Source: a virus. Taken from it: 64,000 nucleotides of DNA. Shown here piece by piece: positions 11,233 to 62,241 of the stretch. The stretch lies in IMG/VR virus record IMGVR_UViG_3300045941_000223, positions 1 to 64,000 of that record. One strand, given 5' to 3'. Each line of letters begins with the position of its first letter. Position 1 is the first letter of the stretch. The notes beneath the pieces are model-generated. The model did no database searches. It saw nothing but the letters and a program-made list of their open reading frames with translations, and was not told the DNA's origin. A program made the position numbers and the translations under genes.

Positions 11233-13027
11233 TCCGCACCCGCAAGAGACCCGTACCGATTTCATGAACCGGTGCTGCTTCGAAACCGGTCGCGCCGAGC
11301 CCGGGTGGAGCAACGACGCCGTGGCGGCGGCCTGCTTCAGCGCATGGGGGCGCTCGCGCGCCAACAAGCAGGCGGCATGGCAAAACGCTCGGGGAAGGGC
11401 CATATCTACCCTGCGGTTCGACCCGAACCAGCCGAGAGACGAATATGGCCGATGGACCGACGCAGGCGGATCAGGACTTGCTGAAGGACTTGACGAAGGA
11501 AGACCGGGAGCTGGTGCTGTCCACGGTGAAAAATCACCCCGGCCTTTCGATCGAAGAAGCCCTACGGATGTTGAAAGCAGCCGGAATGTAGTCGCGGTCT
11601 GGACCCGCGGCAGTCACACATTCCATGAGCTGAACGCTGACGGTGCCGGGCGCTTCAGCGTCGCCATCCAATCGGCCAAACATTCCAATCCGTACGGGGC
11701 GTCGGTCCACGCCTACCCGACCAGAGCCTACGAGTACATGCGGACGTTCGTGTCGCCGAACGGCGACTACGGCTTCGCCCTCAAGGGCGACGATATCGTC
11801 TCGCTGTTCAAGAACCCGAACTCGGATCAGCCCGGTGTGGCTGGCGCGGCGATCGACCTCGCCGTACAGCAAGGCGGCCGACGCGCCGACGCATTCGATA
11901 CCGTCCTGCCGGACCTCTACGCCAAGCACGGCCTGCGGGTGGTCGCGCGCCTCGCGTGGGACGACAAGGAAGCACCGCCCGGCTGGGACAAGAAGACCTA
12001 CCAGAAGTTCAACAACGGCGAGCCGGACGTGGTGTTCATGGTCTACGACCCGGCCTCGACGACCTATACCGCTGGGCAGGGCGAGCGGGTGGACGAGTAC
12101 GACGACGGCAAGGCGACGCAGGACCGGGAGCTGGAGGCGATCGACGCCGCCAAGCCACCGGAACCGCCGCCGCCACCGAGACCGGAGCAGCCGCGGTTTG
12201 GATTCGGGGAGGCCGATCCCAAGCTGGAGATCAACCGGCAGATATCGGCCGATTACGTGCTGCGAGAAGGCAGGCGCACCGACACCGAGCACCTGCGCTG
12301 GATCGATCTGGCCACCGGCGAGCTGTCACCGGAGATCGAGGAAGGTACCGAAAAGGAAGTCGGCTTCGGGCCCGAGCTGGGAAAGGCGCTGGACGATCCG
12401 TCCCGCGCGATCGAGGTTGATCACAATCACCCGAACTCCAGCCCGCTCTCGGTGCAGGATCTGGCCATTCTCAGCACCAAGCCGGGATGTTACGGCGTGC
12501 GGGCGCTCGGCCACGACGGCAGCATCTATGCCGCCAGCCGACCAGCGAGGCATGACATTCGTGGCGCATTCAAGAAGGCGAGGGGGGCGCAGTACACCGA
12601 CGCCGACGAGTTTCTGGTCGATGAGATCACGTCGGAAAAGATGGAGCCGGATCGGGGTACGAAGATTTTCTTCCATGCCGTCAGCGATGCGCTCGGACGC
12701 AACGGCTGGTTCGATTACGGCTTCCGCCTCGCGCCCGATCTCCAGCGCGATATCGATCGGCTGAGCAAGGAGTACAACGCACTGGTCGCCGACATGCAGA
12801 AACGCGCCGGGCCGCCGCCGACGTTCGCAGGCAGATCGATCGATATCGATTGGGAGAAGTACCCGGTGCCGAATGCCTTCATCGATCCGCCCGGCGAGTA
12901 CGAGCCGCTGGACGAGTGGATCAGCTATCGGAAGGAACTCGACGAGCTGAGCCATCTCCCCGGCATCGAGCCGTTCAAGCAGGAAGCCGACGAAATCATC
13001 GAGCGCAAGCGGAGGCAGCAGAAATGA
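11222..13027 (+). CDS. Cargo protein: GNAT-like and JAMM-like domains
   Basis: 601 residues, ATG overlapping the previous stop. Order: an RTDFMNRCCF...AVAACFSAWG motif (also in the capsid protease), the shared module FDPNQPRDEYGRWTDAGG (about 66-83), then a GNAT-like domain (about 125-285; ends EPDVVFMVYDP). After a Pro-rich linker comes a JAMM-like domain with HNHPNSSPLSVQD (His401, His403, Ser410, Asp413; Glu398 upstream). JAMM enzymes are zinc proteases or deubiquitinases. The Ser spacing is one residue shorter than classical JAMM. Residues about 84-122 are written in an atypical frame (see 11445-11591), so the protein as read may contain a frame-displaced stretch. Confidence 0.55.
   Translation: MPVDPHPQETRTDFMNRCCFETGRAEPGWSNDAVAAACFSAWGRSRANKQAAWQNARGRAISTLRFDPNQPRDEYGRWTDAGGSGLAEGLDEGRPGAGAVHGEKSPRPFDRRSPTDVESSRNVVAVWTRGSHTFHELNADGAGRFSVAIQSAKHSNPYGASVHAYPTRAYEYMRTFVSPNGDYGFALKGDDIVSLFKNPNSDQPGVAGAAIDLAVQQGGRRADAFDTVLPDLYAKHGLRVVARLAWDDKEAPPGWDKKTYQKFNNGEPDVVFMVYDPASTTYTAGQGERVDEYDDGKATQDRELEAIDAAKPPEPPPPPRPEQPRFGFGEADPKLEINRQISADYVLREGRRTDTEHLRWIDLATGELSPEIEEGTEKEVGFGPELGKALDDPSRAIEVDHNHPNSSPLSVQDLAILSTKPGCYGVRALGHDGSIYAASRPARHDIRGAFKKARGAQYTDADEFLVDEITSEKMEPDRGTKIFFHAVSDALGRNGWFDYGFRLAPDLQRDIDRLSKEYNALVADMQKRAGPPPTFAGRSIDIDWEKYPVPNAFIDPPGEYEPLDEWISYRKELDELSHLPGIEPFKQEADEIIERKRRQQK
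11445..11591 (+). other. Alternative-frame coding segment inside a cargo gene
   Basis: A 48-residue frame in the +1 register of the 11222-13027 gene, ATG to TAG. It reads LLKDLTKEDRELVLSTVKN, then HPGLSIEEALRMLKAAGM, a well-formed helical pair of the kind found next to GRWTD modules in such phages. By eye its third codon positions are mostly G/C like the rest of the genome, while the main frame here is mostly A/T at third positions. It is either a nested gene or the remains of two compensating frameshifts. Confidence 0.5.
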
Positions 13028-14136
13028 CCGCCACCGTCGATGGACGCCCGGCCACGCTGGCCTACTTCAAGGGCGAGTTCGATCCGGCGAGCGAGGCCGA
13101 CGCCACCTTGGTGCAAATCACCTTCATGGACGCCCGCGGCGGATCGCACTTCTACGTGCCCGATCCCGCCAAGCGCGAAGCCGAGAAGCGATCGATCCAA
13201 TGGAAGCGGGCCAAGGCCAGAGCGCAGGTGTTGCTGCGCGAGTTCGACGAGAGCAAGCATCCGCGCGACGAGCGCGGACGCTGGACGGACGGCGGGGGCG
13301 GCGACGACAGTCTCGCCGAGGACACCGAGAGCGGGTACGGGAAGAACCCGACCGCCACCGAGATTTACGAGAGCTACAAAACGCCGACGATGGAAGAAGT
13401 GCGGGCGCGGCTGAGCCCGCGTGATATCGAAGAGATCGATCAGGCCAAGCGCGATATGGAAGGTCGCATTCCGACCATGGCGCAATTCAAGCAACCGGAC
13501 GGCAAGTACACTCCGGAACGCGTGGCAGTGCACGCCGACATTATCAAGAACAAGATGAAGCTGTTCAGCCCGGAGAACATTGCCAAGTACACGCCACCAG
13601 CAGGCGAGAAGCCATTGGTGACGCTGGTCGGTGGGCGACCAGCCAGCGGCAAAACCACGTCGCTACCGGCTGAAATTATGGAATCGAGCCTATATATATC
13701 CGCAGACGACGTGCAGGAACATTTGCCCGGATACGAGCCCCGGCTGGCTGGCCTGTTCAACGGCGAGGCGCAAGAGATTGGCGATCGTATCGAAGAGATG
13801 GCCCGCGAGCTGAAGATCAACGTCATCTTCGATTCGACTATGAAGACGCAAAAAACCGCCGCCGGGCGGCTTGCGGCCTACCAGCAGGCGGGTTACGAGG
13901 CGGACGGGTACTTCGTCAGCACGTCGCCGATCGAATCGGCCGTGCGGACGGTCGGCCGGTTCCGGCACAAGAAGGGCGACTACAGCGGGCGGTTCGTGCC
14001 GCCGGAAGTGACGATCGCCAGCACGACCAACGAGAAGACATTCGACTCGCTGAAGTCGGAGTTCCGGAGCTGGAAATTGTTTGATAACAACGGGGACAAG
14101 CTCAAGCTGGTCGCCGAAGGTGGAAAAGGGAAGTAG
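13024..14136 (+). CDS. Cargo protein with zeta-toxin-like kinase
   Basis: 370 residues, ATGA start. The shared module HPRDERGRWTDGGG (about 79-92) follows a WKRAKARAQVLLREF helix almost the same as in the 7962 gene. From about residue 190 there is a P-loop ATPase fold: VGGRPASGKTTS with Lys210, SADDVQEHLPGY, NVIFDSTM, and an Arg-rich lid (RTVGRFRHKKG). This matches zeta-type toxins and related small-molecule or peptidoglycan-precursor kinases. No classical epsilon antitoxin is adjacent; the next gene encodes only 59 residues. Confidence 0.7.
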   Translation: MTATVDGRPATLAYFKGEFDPASEADATLVQITFMDARGGSHFYVPDPAKREAEKRSIQWKRAKARAQVLLREFDESKHPRDERGRWTDGGGGDDSLAEDTESGYGKNPTATEIYESYKTPTMEEVRARLSPRDIEEIDQAKRDMEGRIPTMAQFKQPDGKYTPERVAVHADIIKNKMKLFSPENIAKYTPPAGEKPLVTLVGGRPASGKTTSLPAEIMESSLYISADDVQEHLPGYEPRLAGLFNGEAQEIGDRIEEMARELKINVIFDSTMKTQKTAAGRLAAYQQAGYEADGYFVSTSPIESAVRTVGRFRHKKGDYSGRFVPPEVTIASTTNEKTFDSLKSEFRSWKLFDNNGDKLKLVAEGGKGK

Positions 14137-14139
14137 GCC

Positions 14140-14319
14140 ATGAAGCCATTGCCAAAGCGCACCGACCGCGGGCCGCTCATCGTCGAGACGCCAGCCGGTC
14201 CGCTCTACGCGGACGACACCTATGGCGAGGGATTTAACCCTCCGAAGCCGGATGATCCGTTGATGCAGGCGATCAGGCAGGGGATCGCCGAGGACAAGGC
14301 CAAGGCCGGGAAGTCCTAG
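14140..14319 (+). CDS. Small protein after the zeta-like gene
   Basis: 59 residues, three bases after the kinase gene. Begins MKPLPKRTDRGPLIVET, has an acidic and Pro-rich middle (DDTYGEGFNPPKPDDPL) and a helical end. It closes the rightward cluster, and its stop overlaps the stop of the leftward gene 14316-14519 inside CCTAGG. Position allows an immunity or antitoxin role for the kinase, but nothing in the sequence shows one. Confidence 0.5.
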   Translation: MKPLPKRTDRGPLIVETPAGPLYADDTYGEGFNPPKPDDPLMQAIRQGIAEDKAKAGKS

Positions 14320-14519
14320 GCCGCGTTGGCCGTGGTTTCGGTCTCTTTGCTCTCCCAGCAGGCCAGATGACCGTTCCATCGGATCGTATGGTTACCGAAC
14401 ATCACGCGGACCTCGCGCAAGGTCAGGTTGGCGGGAACCAACCCCATCAGCGTGCCGTTCGCTCCGACGACTTTAACGAGCCGGGCCGTCACCGGTCCGT
14501 CTCTGATCAGGCGGGTCAT
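14316..14519 (-). CDS. Hypothetical leftward protein
   Basis: 67 residues, last gene of the leftward island and convergent with the cargo cluster. A strong GGGAGG ribosome site and its own promoter (14544-14572) precede the ATG. Contains strand-like MGLVPANLTLREVRVMFGNH and a WNGHLACWE end. No family recognised. A separate promoter for one small gene suggests tight control. Confidence 0.55.
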   Translation of the reverse strand: MTRLIRDGPVTARLVKVVGANGTLMGLVPANLTLREVRVMFGNHTIRWNGHLACWESKETETTANAA

Positions 14520-14543
14520 TAGTCTTACCTCCCTTCCAATACT

Positions 14544-14572
14544 AATATAGGGCGTAATGGCCTACATTTCAA
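14544..14572 (-). promoter_or_regulatory. Leftward promoter with operator (site 1)
   Basis: On the minus strand TTGAAA (14567-14572), a 17-bp spacer, then TATATT (14544-14549). The operator-like 17-mer occupies 14548-14564 and covers the spacer. The -35 lies in the last codons of the HTH gene and the HTH stop codon lies in the operator. Drives 14316-14519. Confidence 0.75.
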
Positions 14573-14831
14573 GATGCCGCTCGTAATCCATCCTCGCCAC
14601 GTCTTCCGGCGAATGCTTCTTGCGCACCATCAGCCGCAGCAGCATGGCGGTGGCGCGCGGGATCGGGGCCTCGCCCAGCGCCCAGCGCCGCGACGTGCGC
14701 GGGCCGACGCCGATGAACCTGCCCGCCTGAACTTGATTCAGGTCGAGCGCGTCGATCGCTTCTCGGTACTGTTCTTTGGTCATGACGCGCTTCGCGGTCT
14801 TCTTCTTGGTAGCGGTCTTGCGCTTGGCCAT
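14562..14831 (-). CDS. HTH transcriptional regulator
   Basis: 89 residues: a Lys/Arg-rich start, then TKEQYREAIDALDLNQVQAG and RFIGVGPRTSRRWALGEAPI, a typical helix-turn-helix with the second helix in GPRTSRRWAL. It is flanked by two copies of the operator (14548-14564 and 14859-14875), the upstream copy being its own promoter with a weak -10 (TAGGAG). Likely the DNA-binding protein of the leftward regulon and self-regulated; that link is inference. The leader has CCGCA-GA-TGCGG beside the GGAGG ribosome site, which may limit translation. Confidence 0.75.
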   Translation of the reverse strand: MAKRKTATKKKTAKRVMTKEQYREAIDALDLNQVQAGRFIGVGPRTSRRWALGEAPIPRATAMLLRLMVRKKHSPEDVARMDYERHLEM

Positions 14832-14854
14832 GGGAACCTCCGCATCTGCGGCAA

Positions 14855-14883
14855 CTCCTAGGACGTAATGGCCTAGCTCGCAA
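14855..14883 (-). promoter_or_regulatory. Leftward promoter with operator (site 2, HTH gene)
   Basis: Minus strand TTGCGA (14878-14883), 17-bp spacer, TAGGAG (14855-14860). Operator TAGGACGTAATGGCCTA at 14859-14875. The -10 is the poorest of the set, fitting low basal expression of a regulator. The stop codon of gene 14873-15478 lies in the operator. Confidence 0.6.
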
Positions 14884-15478
14884 GAGCCTGCTCAGGGTTG
14901 TGAACACATCGCCGGACGAGTTCCTGATGCAAGAGATCGGACATATCCCAGCTCCCGCCGTTGATCCGGCGATCGGTCGCTCGGTCGATGTAGGGGCCGA
15001 ACCCGCTGGAATGCAGCAGCTTGAACTCGGCAGGGTTAACGCCGTGCCTGCGGCAGGCGGCCTCGAACGCCCGGCGGCCGAACTCTTCGGAGTACTTCCG
15101 GTCGGTAAATACATAGTCGGAGCCGAACCGGACCTTCTCGGCCCTGAACGAAGGCTGCAGCTCCGATCGGGACTCGACCATGCCCATGGAACTCGCGGTG
15201 CCCTTGGTCTCGGCGAACGTCGCCGAACCGTCCGGCATCAGCCATGCGTACTTCGAGTACTTCAGGTCGATCATGCCGTCGAAGCCGCCACCGGCGTAAG
15301 CGTTGGTGACCGCCTCGACCATCTTGGTGGTCGGGCCGTCCGTCCAGCCGACTCGGATCGAGGCTCCACCGGAGTAGGTGTGCGATCGGACCGAGAATTT
15401 GACGCCCGGGAATGCCTTCTTCAGGGCGACCCGGATCAGCTTGGCAGTCTCGGCGCAGCTCAGGTAGCGGGTAGTCAT
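14873..15478 (-). CDS. LPD29-like protein
   Basis: 201 residues. The first 100 residues match the LPD29 pattern of large polyvalent proteins: AAxLIRxALKKAFPGVKFSV-like start, YSGGASI, VGWTDGPT and FDGMIDLKY. LPD domains are carried by phage and plasmid proteins delivered or made early in infection; the role is unknown. The start overlaps the upstream small zinc protein (ATGA). Confidence 0.6.
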   Translation of the reverse strand: MTTRYLSCAETAKLIRVALKKAFPGVKFSVRSHTYSGGASIRVGWTDGPTTKMVEAVTNAYAGGGFDGMIDLKYSKYAWLMPDGSATFAETKGTASSMGMVESRSELQPSFRAEKVRFGSDYVFTDRKYSEEFGRRAFEAACRRHGVNPAEFKLLHSSGFGPYIDRATDRRINGGSWDMSDLLHQELVRRCVHNPEQALAS

Positions 15479-15660
15479 TTCGTTCCTTTCGTCATGGTGA
15501 AGGGATAGGCCAGCGCGGTCAGGTAACCGTCGCGGGCAGCGAGGATGGCAGCACCAGCATCGGTTATGTCGAGAGCGCAGGCATCGCACCGCTCGATCGC
15601 TTCGCGGCCATCGGCTCGCTCGACAATCAGGTAGCGCTTGTCGTGGCAGGTATCGCACAT
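15475..15660 (-). CDS. Small CxxC zinc-ribbon protein
   Basis: 61 residues with CDTC at residues 2-5 and CDAC near 29-32, a plausible four-Cys zinc site, then a helix and a short hydrophobic end. Overlaps the next gene by ATGA and has GGGAGAT ahead of its ATG. Function unknown. Confidence 0.6.
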   Translation of the reverse strand: MCDTCHDKRYLIVERADGREAIERCDACALDITDAGAAILAARDGYLTALAYPFTMTKGTK

Positions 15661-15674
15661 CAGATGATCTCCCT

Positions 15675-15893
15675 TCACTCTTCGTTCGCGCCCCAATCGC
15701 AGCCGTGCTCTTTCGCCTTCTTGGCGGCGAAGCGATCGGCGGCGCGGCGGGCTTCGGCGTAGTCGCGGTAGGCGTCGCCCTCGACGCCCCACTCGAACTC
15801 GCCCTGATCGAAGATGTCGTTGCCTTCGTCGTCGAGCCCGTAGACGTGGATCTGGCGCTGCAGGCGGTTCACATCGACGTAGACATAGGTCAT
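15675..15893 (-). CDS. Hypothetical acidic small protein
   Basis: 72 residues, beginning MTYVYVDVNRLQRQIHVYG and then a long Ala/Arg helix (YAEARRAADRFAAKKAKEHG). The ATG is preceded by GAGAGGAC. Looks like a soluble strand-plus-helix protein; no family recognised. Confidence 0.55.
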   Translation of the reverse strand: MTYVYVDVNRLQRQIHVYGLDDEGNDIFDQGEFEWGVEGDAYRDYAEARRAADRFAAKKAKEHGCDWGANEE

Positions 15894-15907
15894 GTCAGTC
15901 CTCTCGC

Positions 15908-16069
15908 TTAAAACCGGATCTCGAAGTCGATCTCGCCGTTGCGTTCCGGCGTCTTCTCCGGAGGCGGCACCGGGATCGGGAGGTAGAGCGGCAGTCGCCG
16001 TTCCTCGAACTCGCGGTCTTCGCGCTCGCGGCGGCGGCGCAGCTCTTCGATCATCCAACCGGGCAACAT
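15908..16069 (-). CDS. Hypothetical Arg-rich small protein
   Basis: 53 residues: a start MLPGWMIEELRRRREREDRE forms a charged amphipathic helix, followed by a Pro-rich tail. The ATG shares one base with the end of the upstream gene. Function unknown. Confidence 0.5.
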   Translation of the reverse strand: MLPGWMIEELRRRREREDREFEERRLPLYLPIPVPPPEKTPERNGEIDFEIRF

Positions 16070-16314
16070 CAGTAGACCTCCGTTCCGGGCACCAGCCACT
16101 TGCTGCCGCCCCAATAGTCCACGACGAACAGACCAAACTCGGTGTATTCGAGGTAGATCCAGAGCTTCTTCTTCAGCTCTGCCTTCCAGATAGTCTTCAT
16201 GGTTCTTTCCAGATGTGCGGGGCTCGGGAGGTTCGTGCCTCCCGTCCCCATCTTGGACGCGGCGGTTCGCCCCGCGCCTGCGGGAAGGATGGTTCCGACT
16301 TCGGTCTTGGCCAT
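16069..16314 (-). CDS. Hypothetical small protein, first in operon 3
   Basis: 81 residues. Starts 17 bases after the -10 of promoter site 3 with ribosome site GGAGGGAGAA. The C-terminal half (MKTIWKAELKKKLWIYLEYT, then GLFVVDYWGG) is likely a compact beta fold and may also be made from the internal ATG at about 16200. Heads the operon running to 14873. Confidence 0.5.
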   Translation of the reverse strand: MAKTEVGTILPAGAGRTAASKMGTGGTNLPSPAHLERTMKTIWKAELKKKLWIYLEYTEFGLFVVDYWGGSKWLVPGTEVY

Positions 16315-16330
16315 TTCTCCCTCCACCATA

Positions 16331-16359
16331 CATATAGGGCGTAATGGCCTATAGGGCAA
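16331..16359 (-). promoter_or_regulatory. Leftward promoter with operator (site 3)
   Basis: Minus strand TTGCCC (16354-16359), 17-bp spacer, TATATG (16331-16336). Operator TAGGGCGTAATGGCCTA at 16335-16351, identical to the copy at site 4. Drives 16314 leftward to 14873. Confidence 0.75.
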
Positions 16360-16365
16360 GGGGGC

Positions 16366-16647
16366 CTACGGACTATCTTGGACGTGCATGGCAATATGTT
16401 CCAATTCCGCAATTATCTTGTGAATAACGGTCAGCCGGGCACGATGCTCGGCAAGCGCTTCGTTGATGGCCGTTGGTCCGGACGGGTAGTAGTCGCGCCC
16501 GTTGGGCGCGCTGGCGGCTATCGCCTTCTCGGCCTCGCGAAGGGCGTGGATCGCGGCGATGTAGCCGTTGAAGAGATCGTCCCGGTGCGTGCCGTTCAGG
16601 TGGACGACCGGCAGGGTTAAGGCGTGCAGCGAGTTTCTAATCAGCAT
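16366..16647 (-). CDS. Hypothetical helical protein
   Basis: 93 residues, largely helical: IAAIHALREAEKAIAAS and EHRARLTVIHKIIAELEHIA flank a Gly/Pro loop. Probably a helical hairpin or dimer. The stop lies beside the -35 of promoter site 3. Last gene of the operon from site 4. Function unknown. Confidence 0.55.
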   Translation of the reverse strand: MLIRNSLHALTLPVVHLNGTHRDDLFNGYIAAIHALREAEKAIAASAPNGRDYYPSGPTAINEALAEHRARLTVIHKIIAELEHIAMHVQDSP

Positions 16648-16828
16648 CGATCGGCTCGTCGCTCCAGTAATTGGGGTCGGTCAGCACGTCCGGCCGGTAA
16701 CCGGCCATCTTGCGCTTGTGGCAGACCACGCAGGTCCGGCAGAGCGGAATCCCGCGGGCGTCGTATGCCCATGTGGACGGTCGGCCAGAGCCGCAGGGGC
16801 AGGGGCTGGCTCGGTAGCGGTCGGTCAT
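16637..16828 (-). CDS. Small zinc-binding protein
   Basis: 63 residues with CPCGSGRP near the start and CRTCVVCHKRKMAGYRPDVL in the middle, giving enough Cys/His for one or two zinc sites. Such small double-zinc proteins are common in rhizobial phages and prophages; no activity is known. ATGA-type overlaps on both sides show it is within an operon. Confidence 0.6.
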   Translation of the reverse strand: MTDRYRASPCPCGSGRPSTWAYDARGIPLCRTCVVCHKRKMAGYRPDVLTDPNYWSDEPIDAD

Positions 16829-17061
16829 GCTTTCCACCTTCTCTTTGTCAGCTCTTGCGCCTGATCGAGCAGGCCGCGTTCCTTCAGCAGGAAGTAGGGC
16901 AACTTCTCGATTTCGTGGAGCGGCAGCGCGGCGAGCGGCTTGCCTGCATCGAAGTAGCAGCGCGGATGCGCGTAGTGCCGGGTGCCGTACTTGACCAGCT
17001 CGTCGGACGGCACCATCGGCCCCTTGCAGAACCGGCAGCTATTCCAGCGCTCGCGCCACAT
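16825..17061 (-). CDS. Small zinc-finger-like protein
   Basis: 78 residues. CRFC near residue 9 and HYAHPRC near 29-35 form a likely zinc site; the rest is an Arg/Leu-rich helix pair. The next gene starts in its stop. Function unknown. Confidence 0.55.
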   Translation of the reverse strand: MWRERWNSCRFCKGPMVPSDELVKYGTRHYAHPRCYFDAGKPLAALPLHEIEKLPYFLLKERGLLDQAQELTKRRWKA

Positions 17062-17064
17062 CGC

Positions 17065-17250
17065 TCAGTACTCCGACGTTCCGTCCGCGTATTCCTTGCG
17101 GACCAGCACGTGCAACGCCTCGATCTCGTCGTCGCTGTACTTGTTGGTCATCCACGCCAGAGCTTCAGCGAGATGCTTGATGCCCTCGCGCACCACCCGC
17201 TCGCCTTCGTATCCGGCGTTCTCGACCACGGTGTAGGTCTTTGGTTTCAT
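17065..17250 (-). CDS. Hypothetical small protein
   Basis: 61 residues with a YTVVENAGYEGERVVREGIK strand-turn and a helix (HLAEALAWMTNKYSDDEIEA). Similar in style to small inhibitor or adapter proteins of early phage operons, but no family recognised. Confidence 0.5.
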   Translation of the reverse strand: MKPKTYTVVENAGYEGERVVREGIKHLAEALAWMTNKYSDDEIEALHVLVRKEYADGTSEY

Positions 17251-17262
17251 CCATCCCTCCGT

Positions 17263-17658
17263 TCAGAAGCTGAAGTCGTGGTACTTGGCGCGCTCGCCGA
17301 TCCGCAGGCCGTAGCCTCCGGTCTTGACCAGCCGCCCGGTCTTCTCATTGCGGGCGACTTCGTCCCACATGCCGTGCTTGTTCATCTTGAACAGGTGGAC
17401 GCGGCCGTTCTCGTTGGGCTCGAACAGGTAGGTCTGGCTCTCGCTGAACCCGTTCTTGTCGGTCCGGGTGGCGTTGTCCTCGCGCACCGTGAGCACCGTC
17501 GCGCCGCGCTCGCGGGCGATGCCGATCACCGTGCCGGGGTAGCGGTCGGTCCAAGACAGCATGGTCGCGCCCATGCCGACCGTTGCGTCGGGCTGGCCCT
17601 TCACCGCGCGGGCCAGAACGTGGTTCGTCAAAGAGCCGGTCTGTGTTCCGAGTTTCAT
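17263..17658 (-). CDS. Hypothetical conserved-type protein
   Basis: 131 residues, beta-rich. Begins MKLGTQTGSLTNHVLAR, has SWTDRYPGTVIGIARERGAT and an Asn/Asp-rich middle. Looks like a small beta-barrel. It lies just downstream of the DnaJ-zinc-finger gene. Function unknown. Confidence 0.55.
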   Translation of the reverse strand: MKLGTQTGSLTNHVLARAVKGQPDATVGMGATMLSWTDRYPGTVIGIARERGATVLTVREDNATRTDKNGFSESQTYLFEPNENGRVHLFKMNKHGMWDEVARNEKTGRLVKTGGYGLRIGERAKYHDFSF

Positions 17659-17673
17659 CGCTTCCTTCTCCCT

Positions 17674-18471
17674 TCACTCTGCAGCAAGGTCTGCGGTCTT
17701 CACCCGCATGACCACCGTCTGCTTCTCGCCGTTGTATTCGCCGTGCTCTTTCACGGTGGCAGTCAGCAGGAACTTCTCGCCCTTCTCGGCGTGGAACCGG
17801 GGGGTCTTGCTCACGATCGCGTTCCCGGCGGCGTCGCGCATGGTCACGATCCAGACCGTTTCCTCGCTATTGCGGAACCCGAACGCGGCCCGCGCGTAGC
17901 TCGCGACCCGCTCGACCGTGACCGCGGCGGTGATCCGCTCGCCGACCTTGCCGACGTGGCCGCTCGCGGCCTTGACGGCGTCTTCGGTGGCGATCCGCTC
18001 GATCGCGGCGGCGAGCGCGGCAGCCTGCTTCTCGGTCAGCTCGGCCTTCTCATGCGCCTTGCGCAGCACGTCGGCGATGAATTCGTTCCGGCCCTTGAAG
18101 GCTTCCGCCTTGGCCAGCAGCTCGCCGTAGGTTTCGAGGAAGCCCGCCCGCTTAGCGTCGGCTTCCGCGGCGGCGGCGGCGGCCAGCTCGGCGGCGACCG
18201 CGGCCTTCTTCGCCGCCCGCTTCGCGGCGGTGGCGTTCAGCTTGGCCAGCTCGGCTTCGGTGTAGAGCCGGACGGTTTCGAGACCCTTGTGGCCGGTGCC
18301 GCCGCAGCCGTAGCAGGTCCAGCCGGTGGCCGCCCAAACGTCGGCACCGCCAGCGCCACCGCAGCGGTGGCAGGTCCGGTGCCTCTGAAAGGCGGGCTTA
18401 CCCTTGCCGGTGAGGTAAACGGCACCGCCGTGGGCGGTGCCAGCTCGGGTGAACAGGGCGGCGGTGGTCAT
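17674..18471 (-). CDS. Protein with DnaJ-type zinc finger and helical linker
   Basis: 265 residues. Residues about 34-62 carry two CxxCGGxG units (CHRCGGAGG and CYGCGGTGHKG), as in DnaJ cysteine-rich domains. A long Ala/Lys/Glu helix (about 75-160) follows, then a beta domain with WIVTMRDAAGN. No J domain. First gene after promoter site 4, with a GGAGGG ribosome site only a few bases before ATG. Possibly an adapter that binds host protein or nucleic acid. Confidence 0.65.
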   Translation of the reverse strand: MTTAALFTRAGTAHGGAVYLTGKGKPAFQRHRTCHRCGGAGGADVWAATGWTCYGCGGTGHKGLETVRLYTEAELAKLNATAAKRAAKKAAVAAELAAAAAAEADAKRAGFLETYGELLAKAEAFKGRNEFIADVLRKAHEKAELTEKQAAALAAAIERIATEDAVKAASGHVGKVGERITAAVTVERVASYARAAFGFRNSEETVWIVTMRDAAGNAIVSKTPRFHAEKGEKFLLTATVKEHGEYNGEKQTVVMRVKTADLAAE

Positions 18472-18486
18472 TTTCCCTCCACCCCT

Positions 18487-18515
18487 TATATAGGGCGTAA
18501 TGGCCTATCCCGCAA
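18487..18515 (-). promoter_or_regulatory. Leftward promoter with operator (site 4)
   Basis: Minus strand TTGCGG (18510-18515), 17-bp spacer, TATATA (18487-18492). Operator TAGGGCGTAATGGCCTA at 18491-18507. The predicted leader to the ATG at 18471 is only about 15 bases. Drives 18471 to 16366. Confidence 0.8.
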
Positions 18516-18524
18516 GGGGTGCTT

Positions 18525-18833
18525 TCACTCTACTTTCTCGAAGCCGAACCGGGCAACCTTCCAGACTTCCCGGGTGGCAAGGTCGATCGCCACGTCGCCG
18601 ACCGACATGCTGGTATGCCGCAACCCGAGCGCCTTGATCATGCCGAAGGCTTCGCCGTTGGGCGACCAGCGCTCGCCCTGCATCTCGACGAACACCGCTT
18701 CGAGGTTGTCCGCTTCGATCTCGCGCAGGCGGATGTGGGTCTTACCGAGATCGGCCGCGATCGGCTTGCCGAGCCCGCAGATGCCGTCGCGGAAGTGCTC
18801 GGGCCGCATGTACCAGACTTCGAACTTGCGCAT
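18525..18833 (-). CDS. Hypothetical protein
   Basis: 102 residues, mixed alpha/beta, starting MRKFEVWYMRPEHFRDGICG and ending DLATREVWKVARFGFEKVE. Widespread small early-phage type of unknown role. Last gene before promoter site 4. Confidence 0.55.
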   Translation of the reverse strand: MRKFEVWYMRPEHFRDGICGLGKPIAADLGKTHIRLREIEADNLEAVFVEMQGERWSPNGEAFGMIKALGLRHTSMSVGDVAIDLATREVWKVARFGFEKVE

Positions 18834-18836
18834 CGC

Positions 18837-19166
18837 TCAGTACTCCGCTGCCAGCATGATGGTCAGCACCCGGCCCGTGACCTTGGGATCGGCAGGGTCT
18901 TCGCTGCCGTACTCGAATGCCTTGTCGTAGTAGTCGATCTTGAAGAACGCCTTCTCGCCGTTGACCTCGATCGCGCCGAAGTCGTGCTCGCCGTACGGGT
19001 CGTCGCCGTCCGTGAAGTCCTTGAACTCGCGCACCTTGGTCAGGAAGTCCTCGCGCTTGTCGTGGTCGCGGATGCCTTCGGTGAGAACCACCCGGCCGAG
19101 CTGCGGCAGGAACGTGCCGCGCAACAGGTCGTTCAATTCGCGGATCTTGGCAGTCTTGTCGGTCAT
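18837..19166 (-). CDS. DUF3768-family protein
   Basis: 109 residues matching the DUF3768 pattern: IRELNDLLR near the start, RVVLTEGI, then GEHDFGAIEVNGEKAFFKID and a C-terminal GSEDPADPKVTGRVLTIMLA. The family is common in alphaproteobacterial plasmids and phages; function unknown. ATGA overlap with the upstream gene. Confidence 0.8.
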   Translation of the reverse strand: MTDKTAKIRELNDLLRGTFLPQLGRVVLTEGIRDHDKREDFLTKVREFKDFTDGDDPYGEHDFGAIEVNGEKAFFKIDYYDKAFEYGSEDPADPKVTGRVLTIMLAAEY

Positions 19167-19354
19167 CGGTCACCTTTCTTGATGGCGTCTTGCCGTTCAG
19201 TTTCGAGTCGGAACATGCGGGCGTTCAGGCTGTATGCCTCGCCGCTGAGCCCGCCGTTGAAGCAGGACGTTCGCCTGATGCCCTTGGCGCGCATCTCGGC
19301 GCGGGTCTCGCGTAGCTCTCGGTTGATCTCTTTGAGCGTGCGGTTGCCGAACAC
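19163..19354 (-). CDS. Hypothetical helical small protein
   Basis: 63 residues, GTG start, almost all charged helix (LKEINRELRETRAEMRAKG, then LNARMFRLETERQDAIKKG). Likely a coiled-coil dimer. Function unknown. Confidence 0.5.
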   Translation of the reverse strand: MFGNRTLKEINRELRETRAEMRAKGIRRTSCFNGGLSGEAYSLNARMFRLETERQDAIKKGDR

Positions 19355-19403
19355 GTCGTGTCCTTTCAGGTGTGACCGCCGGGCGAACCCGGCGGCCGGT
19401 GGT

Positions 19404-19847
19404 TCAGTCCATCCGAGATCCGGCGTAGGCTTTGACGCCCAGCTCGGTGGTCAGCACTTCCGCCATCGCGCGGGCGGCGGCTTCCTTCCGCTCCAGCGAC
19501 TGACCGAAGTCAGAGATCCAGATATCGACGCCGCCGCGGTAGGCCGCCCGGGCCAGCTTGTTCTTGACCAGCCACTTGGCGAAGCTCGACGTGCCGGGAT
19601 AGACCGTTACCCACGCGAACCCGCAGACCCCTTCCGCTTCGTACCAGCGGTTGCCGCCCTCGACCGGCTTCCCGGCGAGATCGGCGTCGAACACGACCAT
19701 GGCGCGGGGCTTGGCGGCCTCGCCCGCGGCCTTGGCGGCGGCGGCGGCCTTGGCGTAGGCGGCCTCGAAGGCGGCGTAGCGGGCCTTGCGGGCCTTGGTT
19801 TCCGCGGCGATCTTCTCGCGGAGCGAACCATATTCAACGGCAGTCAT
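19404..19847 (-). CDS. Hypothetical protein with Ala-rich helix
   Basis: 147 residues. An Ala/Lys coiled region (about 8-45) precedes a compact domain containing MVVFDADLAGKPVEGGNRWY, GFAWVTVYPG, FAKWLVKN and DIWISDFGQS. First gene after promoter site 5, but separated from it by a leader of about 75 bases with a stable hairpin (19864-19909). Function unknown. Confidence 0.55.
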   Translation of the reverse strand: MTAVEYGSLREKIAAETKARKARYAAFEAAYAKAAAAAKAAGEAAKPRAMVVFDADLAGKPVEGGNRWYEAEGVCGFAWVTVYPGTSSFAKWLVKNKLARAAYRGGVDIWISDFGQSLERKEAAARAMAEVLTTELGVKAYAGSRMD

Positions 19848-19863
19848 TCGTCCTTCCCTTTCC

Positions 19864-19909
19864 GGAGAGCCGGGCGTGTCACGCGGTGGCCACCGCCATC
19901 CGGCTCTCC
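19864..19909 (-). promoter_or_regulatory. Structured leader with mini-gene
   Basis: A perfect 10-bp stem, GGAGAGCCGG (19864-19873) with CCGGCTCTCC (19900-19909), encloses a 26-base loop that itself contains the palindrome GGTGGCCACC. Inside, on the minus strand, a seven-codon frame ATG-TGA (19879-19899; MAVATA) follows GGGAGAG. A leader peptide plus hairpin between promoter site 5 and the first gene suggests attenuation or translational control. Confidence 0.5.
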
Positions 19910-19923
19910 CTCTCTCCACTACT

Positions 19924-19952
19924 TATATAGGGCGTGGTGGCCTATAGGGCAA
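19924..19952 (-). promoter_or_regulatory. Leftward promoter with operator (site 5)
   Basis: Minus strand TTGCCC (19947-19952), 17-bp spacer, TATATA (19924-19929). Operator TAGGGCGTGGTGGCCTA at 19928-19944. Drives 19847 to 18525. Confidence 0.75.
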
Positions 19953-19958
19953 GGGGGC

Positions 19959-20531
19959 CTATCCGGTGACGACCAACAAATTTTCGCGGGCTCGGGCGGT
20001 CAGCCGGTAGAGCACGTAGTCGTTCCGGAACAGAACCTTCCGGCCACGCTTCACGACCGTGAAGGTGTCGATCTTCGCCCCGTTGCGGAACTCCATCGGC
20101 GCGGGGAGCTTGACGACCATCCCGGCCCGGAGCTTGGGGGCGGCCTTGCGCCGGTCGATGTTGGCCCGGCAGCGAGCGCGCCAGTCGCGTGCGTACTTGG
20201 CACCGTCGCCCTTGGCGTCGTCGGCGATCGGCGACAAGAAATCGAGGACCGCGGCGGGCGCGGTGCTCTCGACCGGGCCCATGAACTCGTCCATGTCCTT
20301 CCAGCCGAAGTTGTAGTCGCCCTTGGCCCACTTGGTCAGGAGCACCAGCGCGACCCGAACCTTGCCGTTGGCGTCCGGCACCAGCCGGGCTTCCTTCTCG
20401 GCATCAAGCTCGATGACGGCGTAGAACACCCCGGCCTTGGTGGCCGTGGCCTTGAACTTCATCCCGAACTCGCGCTCGAACCAGTCGGCGGTGGTCACGC
20501 CCTTCGGGCGGTAGGTATACGTCCAACCCAT
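19959..20531 (-). CDS. DUF6927-like protein
   Basis: 190 residues. The N-terminus MGWTYTYRPKGVTTADWFER and the following VFYAVIELDAEKE and VALVLLTKWAKGDYNFGWKD fit the DUF6927-type proteins of rhizobial phages and prophages. The C-terminal 60 residues form a small beta domain (KLRAGMVVKLPAPMEFRNGA). Role unknown. Second gene of the operon from promoter site 6. Confidence 0.6.
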   Translation of the reverse strand: MGWTYTYRPKGVTTADWFEREFGMKFKATATKAGVFYAVIELDAEKEARLVPDANGKVRVALVLLTKWAKGDYNFGWKDMDEFMGPVESTAPAAVLDFLSPIADDAKGDGAKYARDWRARCRANIDRRKAAPKLRAGMVVKLPAPMEFRNGAKIDTFTVVKRGRKVLFRNDYVLYRLTARARENLLVVTG

Positions 20532-20547
20532 CAGCTTGCTTCCTTCC

Positions 20548-20763
20548 TCACATGAGCACCCGGTTCCCAGCCACCTTGGCGGTGGCGAGCGGGATCAGCG
20601 CAGCGACCGAGAAATTGACCATGGCGCGGTGCTTGGTTCTGACCCGCTTTGCGTGAGCAACCGCCGCGGCGTCCTTGGCGGTTGCGAACTTCCAGATGTC
20701 GCCGTTGGCGTCCTTGAGCCAACCAGCAACACCACCGATGACCGTCCAGATTCCGAAGAACAT
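20548..20763 (-). CDS. Small membrane-anchored protein
   Basis: 71 residues from the ATG at 20763: a hydrophobic start MFFGIWTVIGGVAGWL, then WKFATAKDAAAVAHAKRVR (a basic helix), then a second hydrophobic stretch. The ribosome site is weak (AAGAG). A longer reading from GTG at 20973 is possible, but its extra 70 residues look non-coding (Pro/Arg-rich, no strand or helix pattern). Confidence 0.5.
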   Translation of the reverse strand: MFFGIWTVIGGVAGWLKDANGDIWKFATAKDAAAVAHAKRVRTKHRAMVNFSVAALIPLATAKVAGNRVLM

Positions 20764-20970
20764 CGCTCTTGGGCCGCGGGCCGGGGGCTCAAATCGGCAG
20801 TCGGACCGGTCTCGTAGCGGGGGCTCTAGATCCCGCGTTCCTGCCGCTGCCGTCAGACGGAGGGGAGGTTGTGTGGCCCGGTGCGTAGGCAATCCCGTCT
20901 CCCCGGACCCCAAGCACGCATCCTCAGTCCGTTCCGCAATCTCTTCCGGCCTTTCCGGCTTCCCTCCTTC
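20764..20970 (-). promoter_or_regulatory. Long leader downstream of promoter site 6
   Basis: About 200 bases separate the predicted start of transcription from the first gene, unlike the 15-base leaders at sites 3, 4 and 8. It contains AGGAGGGAAG near the 5' end, a possible 22-codon mini-frame (20853-20921) and GAGCCCCCG twice. Nothing else is recognised; it may be a regulatory leader. Confidence 0.3.
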
Positions 20971-20977
20971 CACTACT

Positions 20978-21005
20978 TATATAGGCCATGGTGGCCTACT
21001 TTCAA
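20978..21005 (-). promoter_or_regulatory. Leftward promoter with double operator (site 6)
   Basis: Minus strand TTGAAA (21000-21005), 16-bp spacer, TATATA (20978-20983). The operator at 20982-20998, TAGGCCATGGTGGCCTA, is the best copy: perfect 7-bp inverted arms around three bases. A second copy, TAGGGCGTGGGAGCCTA, lies at 21007-21023, 25 bp away centre to centre, just before the capsid gene on the other strand. Control of both directions is possible. Confidence 0.75.
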
Positions 21006-21048
21006 GTAGGGCGTGGGAGCCTAGCGGAAATAAAAGTAGGAGAGTTCC

Positions 21049-23700: not shown

Positions 23701-25157
23701 GCAGAGTTCGTAGGCTCATATCTCGTCTCGGCGGCGCGTTGGTTCAGCGCGCCGCCGAAGGCGAATATCGCCCCGGTCCGTACCATCTTCCGGTCACGGG
23801 CGGCTGGCTCAGCGCCGAGGCCGGTCAGTACTGGAATTGGTGGCAGAACGGATACGATGTCGAAAGCCGATCGAGTCAGTCGGCCATGGTCGAGGCGTGC
23901 GTCTCGGCCTACGCACAGACCGTTGCAATGTGCCCGGGGGATCACTGGCGCGCGAACACCAAGGGCGGACGCGACCGGATCATCAACTCGTCGCTCTCGC
24001 GCGTGCTGCGCAAGCCGAACTACTACCAGAGCATGAGCGACTTCATGCTCAATGCCACCCGCTCGCTCTATCTCGACGGCAATGCCTATGCGCTGGCGGT
24101 GCGCAATGATCGCTACGAGATCGTCGAATTGCACCTGATGGACCCGCGCCAGTCCACTCCGATGGTCGCGCGCCAGACCGGCGATGTGTTCTATCGCTTG
24201 GGCGGCAATGACGTGATCGATTACCGGCTCGGCTATCAGCTCGGTTACGAAGAGACGCTGGTGCCGATGCGCGACGTGCTGCACATCCGGCTGCACAGCG
24301 GCAAACGGCATCCGCGCCCGTTGTTGGGCGAGTCGCCATTGACTGCGGCGCTGGCCGATCTGGCGGCATCGTCGGCGATCCTCGATCAGCAGATCCAGTT
24401 CTACATGAACCAAGCGCGGCCGAGCGCCGTGCTGTCCACCGATCTGGTGCTCTCGCCCGAGCAGACGGCGGCGCTGCGGGATCGCTGGAACGAGCAGGCC
24501 AAGGGGCTGTGCTCCGGTGGCGTTCCGATCCTGACCGCCGGGCTGAAGGTGCAGCCGTGGGGGCAGAGCCCGAAGGACTCCGAGCTGGCGGAAGTGATGA
24601 AGCTGACCGATCAGAAGATCGCGCTCGCCTTCCGCGTTCCGTTGCAGATCCTTGGGCTCGGCGGACCGGCATCGTCCACCGAGATGATGATGCAATCGTG
24701 GATCGCCACCGGTCTCGGCTTTGCGCTGAACCACATCGAGGAATCATTCGGCCTGCTGTTCGAGTTGCGCGGTCAGCCCGACGAGTACGTGGAGTTCGAT
24801 ACCGCAGCATTGCTGCGCACCGCCTTCAAGGATCGCATCGACGCGCTGGTGCGCGGTGTGCAGGGCGGCGTCATGGCTCCGAACGAGGCCCGAAATCTCG
24901 AAGGCTACGATTCCGTACCGCATGGATCGGAGCCGAGAGTGCAGCAGCAGGTTGTCCCGCTTTCGGCTGCGGCAGCAATTCCTGCCGCGCCGCCGTCACC
25001 CGGACAGCCGTCGTCTGCTGCGCAGAAGATCACCGAAGAGAAGCCCGAACCCAAGCCCGAGCCGAAACCGGCGAAGGACTATGCAAATGACCTCCAACGG
25101 GAAATCCGAAACATTCGGTCAGCCGCCGAGCGAATCGCACGCCGACGTACTGCTTGA
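23697..25157 (+). CDS. Portal protein (HK97 family)
   Basis: 486 residues; forms the dodecameric ring at one head vertex through which DNA passes and to which the neck binds. Recognised by the early WWQNGYDVES and ACVSAYAQTVA segments, LYLDGNAYALAVRN, the DVLHIR strand, and the long helix with ALAFRVPLQILGL. The C-terminal 70 residues are Pro/Glu/Lys-rich and disordered and contain no MuF domain. The next gene begins inside its last 71 bases. Confidence 0.9.
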   Translation: MSRVRRLISRLGGALVQRAAEGEYRPGPYHLPVTGGWLSAEAGQYWNWWQNGYDVESRSSQSAMVEACVSAYAQTVAMCPGDHWRANTKGGRDRIINSSLSRVLRKPNYYQSMSDFMLNATRSLYLDGNAYALAVRNDRYEIVELHLMDPRQSTPMVARQTGDVFYRLGGNDVIDYRLGYQLGYEETLVPMRDVLHIRLHSGKRHPRPLLGESPLTAALADLAASSAILDQQIQFYMNQARPSAVLSTDLVLSPEQTAALRDRWNEQAKGLCSGGVPILTAGLKVQPWGQSPKDSELAEVMKLTDQKIALAFRVPLQILGLGGPASSTEMMMQSWIATGLGFALNHIEESFGLLFELRGQPDEYVEFDTAALLRTAFKDRIDALVRGVQGGVMAPNEARNLEGYDSVPHGSEPRVQQQVVPLSAAAAIPAAPPSPGQPSSAAQKITEEKPEPKPEPKPAKDYANDLQREIRNIRSAAERIARRRTA

Positions 25158-57254: not shown

Positions 57255-57445
57255 GCGTTACCTCCCTTCGTCCGTTCGAGCATGTCGTTGGTCTCTTTGG
57301 TGATCCTCTCCATCACCGGGCCGTGCTTGCCGCACCATCCATCGCGGACCGCCCGGCGTCTGCACTGCTTGCCGTTGTTGAACATCGCGCAGCAGCGCTT
57401 GACGCCTTCCGCTTCCAGCTCGCGCCATGTCTTCTTCTCGGTCAT
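57251..57445 (-). CDS. Small Cys/His protein
   Basis: 64 residues. CCAMFNNGKQC and GWCGKH form a probable zinc site. Charged helices on each side. ATGA overlaps with both neighbours. Function unknown. Confidence 0.55.
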   Translation of the reverse strand: MTEKKTWRELEAEGVKRCCAMFNNGKQCRRRAVRDGWCGKHGPVMERITKETNDMLERTKGGNA

Positions 57446-57957
57446 GCCGCTTCCTTTCCCTCTCCGTAGACCGCCAGTGCCCGCGCCCGCAGCTCGGCGT
57501 CGCCGCGCGTCATGACCGCCAGCAGCTCGGCCTTCTCGGGCAGGAAGACCGCGGCGAAGCCGGGGTCGTGCTCGACGATGTCCTTGGCGTTGTCGAGCAG
57601 GTCGGCGTACTTGATGGTGTGGGCGGCGGCGTCGGCACCGGCGAGGTTCATCAGGTCGAGCCGCTTCCGCCGCGCCCGGTTGCCGTCAACCCCGGTCTTC
57701 GAGATCCTGGTCAGCCAGAGCACCAGATTGGCCACCCGGTTGCCGAAGCCGTGAACCAGCTCGGCGTAGGTGACGTTGGTGTCTTCGAGGGTGTCGTGCA
57801 GGAAGGCGGCGGCGACCATCTCGGCGTCGTCGGTCCGCTCGGCGACCAGCCCGGCCACCCGGATCAGGTGGTTCACGTAGGGCTCTTCGGTGTACTTCCG
57901 GACGTGTCCCGCGTGGGCTTCCGTCGCGAACCGAAGTGCTCTGTTTACGAGGTCCAT
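57442..57957 (-). CDS. HD-domain hydrolase, MESH1/SpoT-like
   Basis: 171 residues, the size of small alarmone hydrolases. HAGHVRKYTEEPYVNHLIRV, AFLHDTLEDTN and VANLVLWLTRISK match the HD fold of SpoT/MESH1; His30, His54-Asp55, Glu58-Asp59 fit the metal site. A phage enzyme of this kind would remove (p)ppGpp and keep the host out of starvation response. Activity is inferred from motif. The ATG at 57957 is chosen for the first family-like residues and lies one base after the mini-gene stop. Confidence 0.7.
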   Translation of the reverse strand: MDLVNRALRFATEAHAGHVRKYTEEPYVNHLIRVAGLVAERTDDAEMVAAAFLHDTLEDTNVTYAELVHGFGNRVANLVLWLTRISKTGVDGNRARRKRLDLMNLAGADAAAHTIKYADLLDNAKDIVEHDPGFAAVFLPEKAELLAVMTRGDAELRARALAVYGEGKEAA

Positions 57958-58073: not shown

Positions 58074-58101
58074 TATATAGGTCTTTATGGCCTACTTTCA
58101 A
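58074..58101 (-). promoter_or_regulatory. Leftward promoter with operator (site 7)
   Basis: Minus strand TTGAAA (58096-58101), 16-bp spacer, TATATA (58074-58079). Operator TAGGTCTTTATGGCCTA at 58078-58094, the most divergent left arm. Embedded in the end of gene 58085-58258. Drives 58054 to 56074. Confidence 0.75.
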
Positions 58102-61841: not shown

Positions 61842-62044
61842 GGCGTCTCCAGCTTGCGCAAACGCTCGCCGAAGCGATTGTGCTGCTTGTGCATCGCGCG
61901 GACTTCATCGACCAGCCCGCGCAGAGTGTTGTCCTGCCGCAGCACCATCGCGGTCAGCACGTTGATATCGTCGCGGATAGCGTTGATCCCAGCGATGATC
62001 CGCTCATTCTGTTGCGCTAGAAATTCCAGACTGATCTCGGTCAT
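61838..62044 (-). CDS. Coiled-coil small protein
   Basis: 68 residues, one long helical heptad pattern (EFLAQQNERIIAGINAIRDD, LRGLVDEVRAMHKQHNRFGE). Probably a coiled-coil dimer or trimer. Function unknown. Confidence 0.5.
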   Translation of the reverse strand: MTEISLEFLAQQNERIIAGINAIRDDINVLTAMVLRQDNTLRGLVDEVRAMHKQHNRFGERLRKLETP

Positions 62045-62241
62045 CGCATACCTCGATTGGTGCGGTACTTCGCGGCCCGGCGCTCGTTCTCGGTCGCCTT
62101 GTTGCCGATGGCGATCAGCATGTTGGTGACCGCCTCCGCGACCGTCTCTCCGCGGATGTAGGCGGCCTTCAGCGCCTTCTCGGCGATGCCGGATGTGGCC
62201 AGATCGGCCAGAACCGCTTCGCGCCATTCGTAGTAGGTCAT
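62041..62241 (-). CDS. Hypothetical protein, first gene after promoter site 8
   Basis: 66 residues: MTYYEWREAVLADLATSGIA, EKALKAAYIRGETVAEAVTN and a basic end. GGAGGAACTTTC ribosome site just after promoter site 8. Heads the longest leftward operon, to 58085. Function unknown. Confidence 0.55.
   Translation of the reverse strand: MTYYEWREAVLADLATSGIAEKALKAAYIRGETVAEAVTNMLIAIGNKATENERRAAKYRTNRGMR

What the first reader, a model, noticed from the sequence alone, without database searches (positions are those of the whole stretch)
14544..21023. One operator palindrome controls the leftward genes, with an HTH gene sitting between two copies
Nine 17-bp sites of the form TAGGscgTwATGGCCTA occur at 14548, 14859, 16335, 18491, 19928, 20982, 21007, 58078 and 62264. 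Eight lie exactly between a TTGnnn -35 and a TATATA-like -10 spaced 16-17 bp on the minus strand. The copy at 20982 is a perfect inverted repeat (TAGGCCA-tgg-TGGCCTA). The HTH gene 14562-14831 lies between sites 1 and 2 and is transcribed from site 2. This is a complete early regulon with a likely autoregulated dimeric DNA-binding protein.
Basis: partly seen in the sequence, partly recalled or inferred. Interest (0 to 1): 0.82.

Follow-up and report, generated by a model that had tools for sequence, protein, structure and literature searches.

The report
Phage repressor with many matching switches
A small DNA-binding protein in this uncultivated phage very probably switches off at least ten of the phage's own promoters through one repeated palindromic DNA site, and related phages of soil bacteria carry matched pairs of the same protein and site, so the site can be used to find the genes such phages keep under lock.

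Summary
In the 77-kb virus record, TAGG-N9-CCTA occurs 14 times (0.08 expected). Ten copies fill the 16-17-bp spacer of leftward sigma70 promoters (CTTG / TATAT); three are second upstream copies; one (14859) lies before the HTH gene but lacks a -10. Three promoters lie outside the window, one ahead of excisionase-integrase. The same promoter-operator recurs in other IMG/VR phages and a Bradyrhizobium prophage. The HTH protein is the likely binder. In 42 HTH-family loci found by protein alone, the commonest 6-bp inverted repeat (gap 5) is TAGGGC, then TAGGCC; a site lies within 1 kb upstream of the HTH in 15 of 42 (2.5 expected). A residue beside the recognition helix (D or G) goes with operator base 5 (G or C). 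In nine relatives the HTH gene's own operator has lost one half-site. A DNA-only search of 399 genomes led blind to another HTH gene. Structurally the protein resembles the anti-CRISPR-associated repressors Aca2, Aca10 and Aca1 (and MqsA, HigA2); the Aca1 operator has the same TAGG-N9-CCTA frame. Best reading: an Aca-like repressor, often encoded in one-cargo operons, here governing a phage-wide regulon. Binding is untested.

The parts
14562..14831 (-). HTH gene (89 aa), proposed repressor of the regulon
   Evidence: weak MqsA-family/Xre-like HTH and PHROG transcriptional-regulator matches; AF2 pLDDT 86; Foldseek to Aca2, MqsA, HigA2, Aca10, Aca1; family tied to the operator
14548..14564 (-). 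operator in promoter of gene 14316-14519 (TTGAAA-17-TATATT)
   Evidence: (43.8 bits)
14859..14875 (-). operator between the LPD29 gene and the HTH gene; CTTG but no -10
16335..16351 (-). operator in the promoter of the gene run 16314 to 14562 that ends with the HTH gene
   Evidence: 44.4 bits
16352..16368 (-). second operator copy abutting 16335, covers the -35
18491..18507 (-). operator in promoter of the CxxCGG zinc-finger-like protein gene 17674-18471
   Evidence: 38.0 bits
19928..19944 (-). operator in promoter of the EYGSLREK-family gene 19404-19847
   Evidence: 41.7 bits
19945..19961 (-). second operator copy abutting 19928; the tandem is also seen before the same gene in L086 and L017
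20982..20998 (-). operator with perfect 7-bp arms in promoter of gene 20548-20763 and the following DUF6927 gene 19959-20531
   Evidence: 28.7 bits
21007..21023 (-). second operator copy 25 bp upstream of 20982
58078..58094 (-). operator in promoter ahead of the small alarmone hydrolase-like gene
   Evidence: 32.8 bits
62264..62280 (-). operator in promoter of gene 62041-62241
   Evidence: 32.8 bits
14873..15478 (-). LPD29 (polyvalent-protein domain) gene directly upstream of the HTH gene; homologues near the HTH in L043, L045, L073, L088
19404..19847 (-). EYGSLREK-family gene, behind an operator in ten loci
57442..57957 (-). HD_4 / small alarmone hydrolase-like gene, behind an operator in nine loci
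17674..18471 (-). zinc-finger-like gene of the regulon; homologue behind an operator in L045

Best explanation
The 89-aa HTH protein is an Aca-like transcriptional repressor. It binds, most likely as a dimer, the palindrome TAGG(C/G)C-N5-G(C/G)CCTA placed in the spacer of sigma70-type promoters of a temperate phage and blocks RNA polymerase there. At least ten leftward promoters are switched together, including those ahead of excisionase-integrase, an alarmone hydrolase-like gene and many small accessory genes; the HTH gene is inside the regulon (negative feedback). In a cell without repressor the promoters would fire at once; as repressor accumulates, or in the lysogen, they are shut. Shown by computation: the sites, the promoter geometry, the pairing of protein family with operator, the covariation, the integrase. 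Inferred: binding, repression, dimer state, timing.
For: 14 sites against 0.08 expected. Ten promoters with fixed CTTG-site-TATAT geometry, found by a matrix trained on relatives only. HTH homologues in most operator-rich contigs. In 42 loci found by protein alone TAGGGC and TAGGCC are the two commonest 6-bp inverted repeats with gap 5, and a site lies within 1 kb upstream of the HTH in 15 of 42 (null mean 2.5, max 9; none downstream). Residue 43 D or G against operator base G or C: 10 of 10 and 11 of 11. Half-broken operator at the HTH gene's own promoter in nine relatives. Blind recovery of an HTH gene from DNA alone. Fold like Aca2, Aca10, Aca1; Aca1 operator in the same TAGG-N9-CCTA frame (PMC9410881). 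Consensus-like -35 in relatives argues for repression rather than activation.
Against: No binding or expression data. G012 (37 kb, six sites) has no HTH homologue, though it may be a fragment. In about half of the 42 unbiased loci no site was found, so not all family members use this operator. The covariation rests on only 2-3 independent contrasts. In the window the HTH's nearest operator lacks a -10. Sequence matches to solved Aca proteins are weak (E 0.016-0.75), and Foldseek E-values are above 0.01.
Confidence: 0.78

Rival explanations
1. The operator is read by another protein (a host factor, or the second phage HTH at 67558-67869), and the 89-aa HTH only travels with it.
For: No binding data; a second Cro/C1-type HTH is encoded in the leftward run; G012 has sites but no HTH homologue.
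Against: The promoter pattern is nearly absent from 399 host-family genomes, and in Bradyrhizobium SRL28 all hits fall in one prophage. The second HTH has homologues in only 3 of 11 operator-bearing records, two of them near-identical. Covariation and the upstream position point to the 89-aa family.
Confidence: 0.1
2. The HTH protein binds the operator but activates these promoters or acts as a timing switch rather than as a plain repressor.
For: Several -35 elements in the window phage are only TTG, so help from an activator is conceivable.
Against: The site fills the spacer and runs into the -10, where a bound dimer should block polymerase; relatives have TTGACA with 17 bp and need no activator; the Aca family that it resembles represses from this position (PMC9410906).
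Confidence: 0.08
3. The motif is the promoter of a phage-encoded polymerase or sigma factor, not an operator.
For: Site and promoter elements are conserved together with fixed spacing.
Against: TTGACA-17-TATAT is the ordinary sigma70 form. Second copies lie outside -35/-10 (16352, 19945, 21007), and HTH genes' own promoters keep -35 and -10 while losing one palindrome arm. No polymerase or sigma family was reported among 71 leftward proteins, though the record may be incomplete.
Confidence: 0.04

Closest known systems
Anti-CRISPR-associated repressors Aca1, Aca2, Aca10 (PMC9410906, PMC8434428, PMC9410881)
   Same: Small phage HTH protein; fold; inverted repeat inside the core promoter, sometimes with a second copy; small genes followed by the HTH gene in one operon in the single-operator relatives; the Aca1 IR has the same TAGG-N9-CCTA frame.
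   Different: Only weak sequence similarity; no acr gene shown; here one regulator serves about ten promoters including excisionase-integrase, whereas described Acas serve the acr-aca operon.
MrpR and the SPBRE element of prophage SPbeta (PMC10516654)
   Same: One phage master repressor with a repeated 15-bp element in about ten promoter regions of the prophage.
   Different: MrpR has a tyrosine-recombinase fold, not a small HTH; different site and host.
Mycobacteriophage L5 stoperators and BPs gp33 operators (PMC4557955)
   Same: Multiple repressor sites scattered over a temperate phage genome; in BPs an operator lies between -35 and -10, and half-sites of reduced match occur.
   Different: L5 sites are asymmetric and many block elongation; different repressor families.
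MqsA antitoxin C-terminal HTH domain
   Same: HTH fold (3fmy, 3gn5 among Foldseek hits) and autoregulation.
   Different: No zinc-binding, toxin-binding domain; no toxin partner identified beside the gene.

Membership tests
Aca repressors | small phage or mobile-element HTH protein of the XRE-like fold | tested here: met
   89 aa; AF2 model; Foldseek to Aca2, Aca10, Aca1
Aca repressors | inverted repeat inside the core promoter of the operon that holds the gene | tested here: met
   16335 promoter in the window; single-operator operons in relatives
Aca repressors | gene lies downstream of an acr gene in the same operon | tested here: inconclusive
   small genes precede the HTH gene; none matched a known acr model in NCBIfam or Pfam
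Aca repressors | significant sequence similarity to a named Aca family | tested here: not met
   best profile matches to solved Acas E 0.016-0.75; other Aca families were not compared
Aca repressors | represses its promoter | not testable with these tools
   needs a reporter or binding assay
Multi-site prophage master repressor (MrpR/SPBRE, L5 Rep type, by function) | one repeated operator at many phage promoters in a temperate phage | tested here: met
   ten promoters, integrase present
Multi-site prophage master repressor (MrpR/SPBRE, L5 Rep type, by function) | loss of the repressor leads to induction | not testable with these tools
   needs a mutant
MqsA antitoxin | N-terminal zinc-binding, toxin-binding domain | tested here: not met
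   only the C-terminal HTH part is matched (profile positions 60-123 of 131); the 89-aa sequence holds no cysteine

The most novel reading that the evidence does not exclude
An undescribed Aca-type autorepressor family, found in phages of Rhizobiales mostly in a form that drives one cargo operon, has in some temperate phages become the master repressor of about ten promoters. Its cargo (LPD29 proteins, alarmone hydrolase-like proteins and many unknown small proteins) is a coordinately deployed counter-defence set, so the operator can be used as a bait for new anti-defence genes.
Probability: 0.4. Interest if true: 0.75.

Novelty: new variant of a known kind. Interest (0 to 1): 0.62.

Why it matters
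It gives a testable regulator-operator code (one residue beside the recognition helix against one operator base) and a DNA bait that picks out co-regulated small genes of unknown function in phages that have mostly not been cultured. It would link two known kinds, one-operon Aca autorepressors and multi-site prophage master repressors, through relatives that show both states. No INPHARED record matched the promoter, and only one held an HTH homologue.

Tried and rejected
Host-encoded regulator: rejected, the promoter is nearly absent from 399 host-family genomes; the two exact hits without an HTH (L096, L097) fit the number expected by chance for 15 fixed bases in more than two billion bases, and no HTH was found in the 20 kb around each. 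Second phage HTH as binder: not favoured. Transcription of the HTH from 14859: rejected for lack of a -10. The site at 72533 (one mismatch in eight) has no proper -35/-10 and was left out. Megablast against INPHARED found nothing. Named functions in the regulon: NCBIfam and Pfam gave none of interest beyond integrase, Rel/SpoT-like HD, MazG, HTH, LPD29 and DUFs. The independent-contrast test of the covariation could not reach significance because too few contrasts exist; the 'RR only' line of that call used a wrong index and is replaced.

Full report
1. Observation. The window is bases 1-64000 of a 77,254-base IMG/VR virus record. In the whole record TAGG-N9-CCTA occurs 14 times; 200 Markov-1 simulations gave a mean of 0.08 and a maximum of 1, and no copy exists at gaps 6-8 or 10-13. 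Ten copies sit between CTTG and TATATN with a 16- or 17-bp spacer, all pointing left: 14548, 16335, 18491, 19928, 20982, 58078, 62264 in the window and 64217, 66536, 70267 outside it. Three are second copies upstream (16352, 19945, 21007). The fourteenth, 14859, has CTTG but no -10.

2. Same promoter elsewhere. A degenerate scan of IMG/VR found the same promoter-operator in other contigs, often many times each: CTTGACATATAGGCC-nnnnn-GGCCTATAT. Counting 69 sites gives CCNCTTGACATA-TAGGCC-RNAAY-GGCCTA-TAT, with a conserved TG about 27 bases from the start of the site: a sigma70 promoter whose 17-bp spacer is filled by the palindrome. A matrix trained only on relatives finds exactly the ten leftward promoters of the record at 28.7-44.4 bits; the best of five simulated genomes is 8.1.

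3. Who binds. The 89-aa HTH protein has homologues in seven of the eight other contigs longer than 10 kb that hold two or more sites, G012 being the exception. To avoid circularity I took HTH-family loci found by protein search and set aside contigs already found by the DNA pattern and near-duplicates. In the remaining 42, TAGGGC is the commonest of all 6-bp inverted repeats with a 5-bp gap (19 copies in 9 loci) and TAGGCC is second. A TAGG-N9-CCTA site lies within 1 kb upstream of the HTH in 15 of the 42 (null mean 2.5, maximum 9 in 5000 draws) and never within 1 kb downstream. In reverse, searching 399 genomes of the Bradyrhizobium family with DNA alone gave five hits in four genomes: two in the known prophage, one (L099) with an HTH-family gene directly downstream (E=1e-28), and two that look like chance.

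4. A recognition code. Residue 43 of the window protein, in the turn just before the recognition helix (V-[GD]-x-R-T-[SA]-R-R-W-A), goes with operator base 5. D43 with Arg-Arg has G as majority or tie in 10 of 10 loci; G43 has G in the minority in 11 of 11 (mostly C, some T); D43 with Arg-Lys has no G in 3 of 3 (Fisher 2.8e-6, which ignores ancestry). Shared ancestry explains part of this: only 2-3 independent contrasts exist, but they go the same way, and L050 (D43, 10 of 10 half-sites G) is nested inside the G43 clade. The window protein (G43) has mixed half-sites: C in 10, G in 7, A in 1 of the 18 in the region counted.

5. Autoregulation. In the nine regulon-type relatives whose HTH gene has its own site, that site keeps the 3' half (5-6 of 6 bases) but only 3-4 of 6 in the 5' half, against means of 5.7 and 5.6 at other sites. 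A weaker operator at the regulator's own gene would let repressor be made at levels that shut the rest; this is inference. In the window the HTH gene is instead the last of a run of leftward genes starting at 16335, with no minus-strand terminator found; its nearest operator (14859) lacks a -10.

6. Two architectures. In single-operator relatives the operator-promoter is followed by one to three small genes and then the HTH gene, often with overlapping stop and start codons, the plan of an acr-aca operon. In regulon-type phages there are 5-9 such sites per locus. The two share cargo: the LPD29 gene upstream of the HTH in the window has a homologue in the operator-HTH operon of a Methylobacterium contig, L088, and the HTSPETAYV family occurs in both types (L058, and L060/L067/L068/L073). 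The EYGSLREK family and the alarmone hydrolase-like HD family are the genes most often found behind the operator.

7. Lifestyle. Site 70267 precedes an excisionase-like HTH_17 protein and a tyrosine integrase (1e-19). A relative lies in a 907-kb Bradyrhizobium contig, where all promoter hits of the 9.7-Mb genome fall within about 53 kb. So this is probably a temperate phage, and the operator probably keeps integrase and accessory genes off in the lysogen. Early expression is an inference from the promoter type.

8. What it is like. The AF2 model (pLDDT 86) has as nearest solved structures Aca2, the MqsA C-terminal domain, HigA2, Aca10 and Aca1 with DNA (E-values above 0.01, as usual for so small a domain). 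A family profile lists Aca10 (7xi5) first, Aca2 second and Aca1 further down among 12 weak hits. Aca proteins repress from an inverted repeat inside the core promoter, sometimes with a second copy (PMC9410906); the Aca1 oligo quoted in PMC9410881 contains TTAGGCACAATGTGCCTAA. The protein works like an Aca on this evidence; membership in a named Aca family is not shown. As a multi-site system the nearest analogue is MrpR/SPBRE of SPbeta (PMC10516654), a different protein fold. I found no described Aca-type protein serving a phage-wide regulon in the papers held, which is not proof of absence.

9. Limits. There are no binding, expression or timing data. Gene calls come from my own codon-usage script. 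The anti-defence role of the cargo is a guess from LPD29 and the alarmone hydrolase-like gene.

Noticed in passing
57442-57957: HD_4 protein with an HDTLEDT motif, similar to Rel/SpoT and Mesh1 hydrolases in the PDB (1.5e-16); conserved behind the operator in relatives. A possible counter to alarmone-based defences.
   Followed up: partly
6010-14136: Five consecutive rightward ORFs carry the same short peptide, (F/Y)D(P/E)(N/S)(Q/E/K)(P/H)PRDExGRWTD(A/T/G)G, seen by eye. Function unknown.
   Followed up: no
25087-26682: Rightward ORF with a long collagen-like Gly-X-Y stretch.
   Followed up: no
41220-44720: Rightward 1166-aa ORF made largely of repeats of the type TLAATEAxDTAAFSG.
   Followed up: no
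14316-20973: Block of about 20 small leftward genes inserted between rightward structural genes (internal virion-like ORFs and the protease-capsid gene), like an accessory island.
   Followed up: partly
L029:6558-6869 (record 67558-67869): A second, unrelated Cro/C1-type HTH gene in the leftward run; homologues in G002/G010 and G013 only.
   Followed up: partly
L029:11533-11549 (record 72533): Operator-like site with one mismatch in the eight arm bases, not framed by -35/-10; resembles the half-broken sites at HTH genes.
   Followed up: no
L013: A 5.7-kb IMG/VR contig nearly identical to the 19-21 kb part of the window (encoded proteins 99-100% identical).
   Followed up: no
L101:15801-16094 (Bradyrhizobium SRL28): A second, divergent HTH-family paralogue about 53 kb from the first in the same prophage region.
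   Followed up: no
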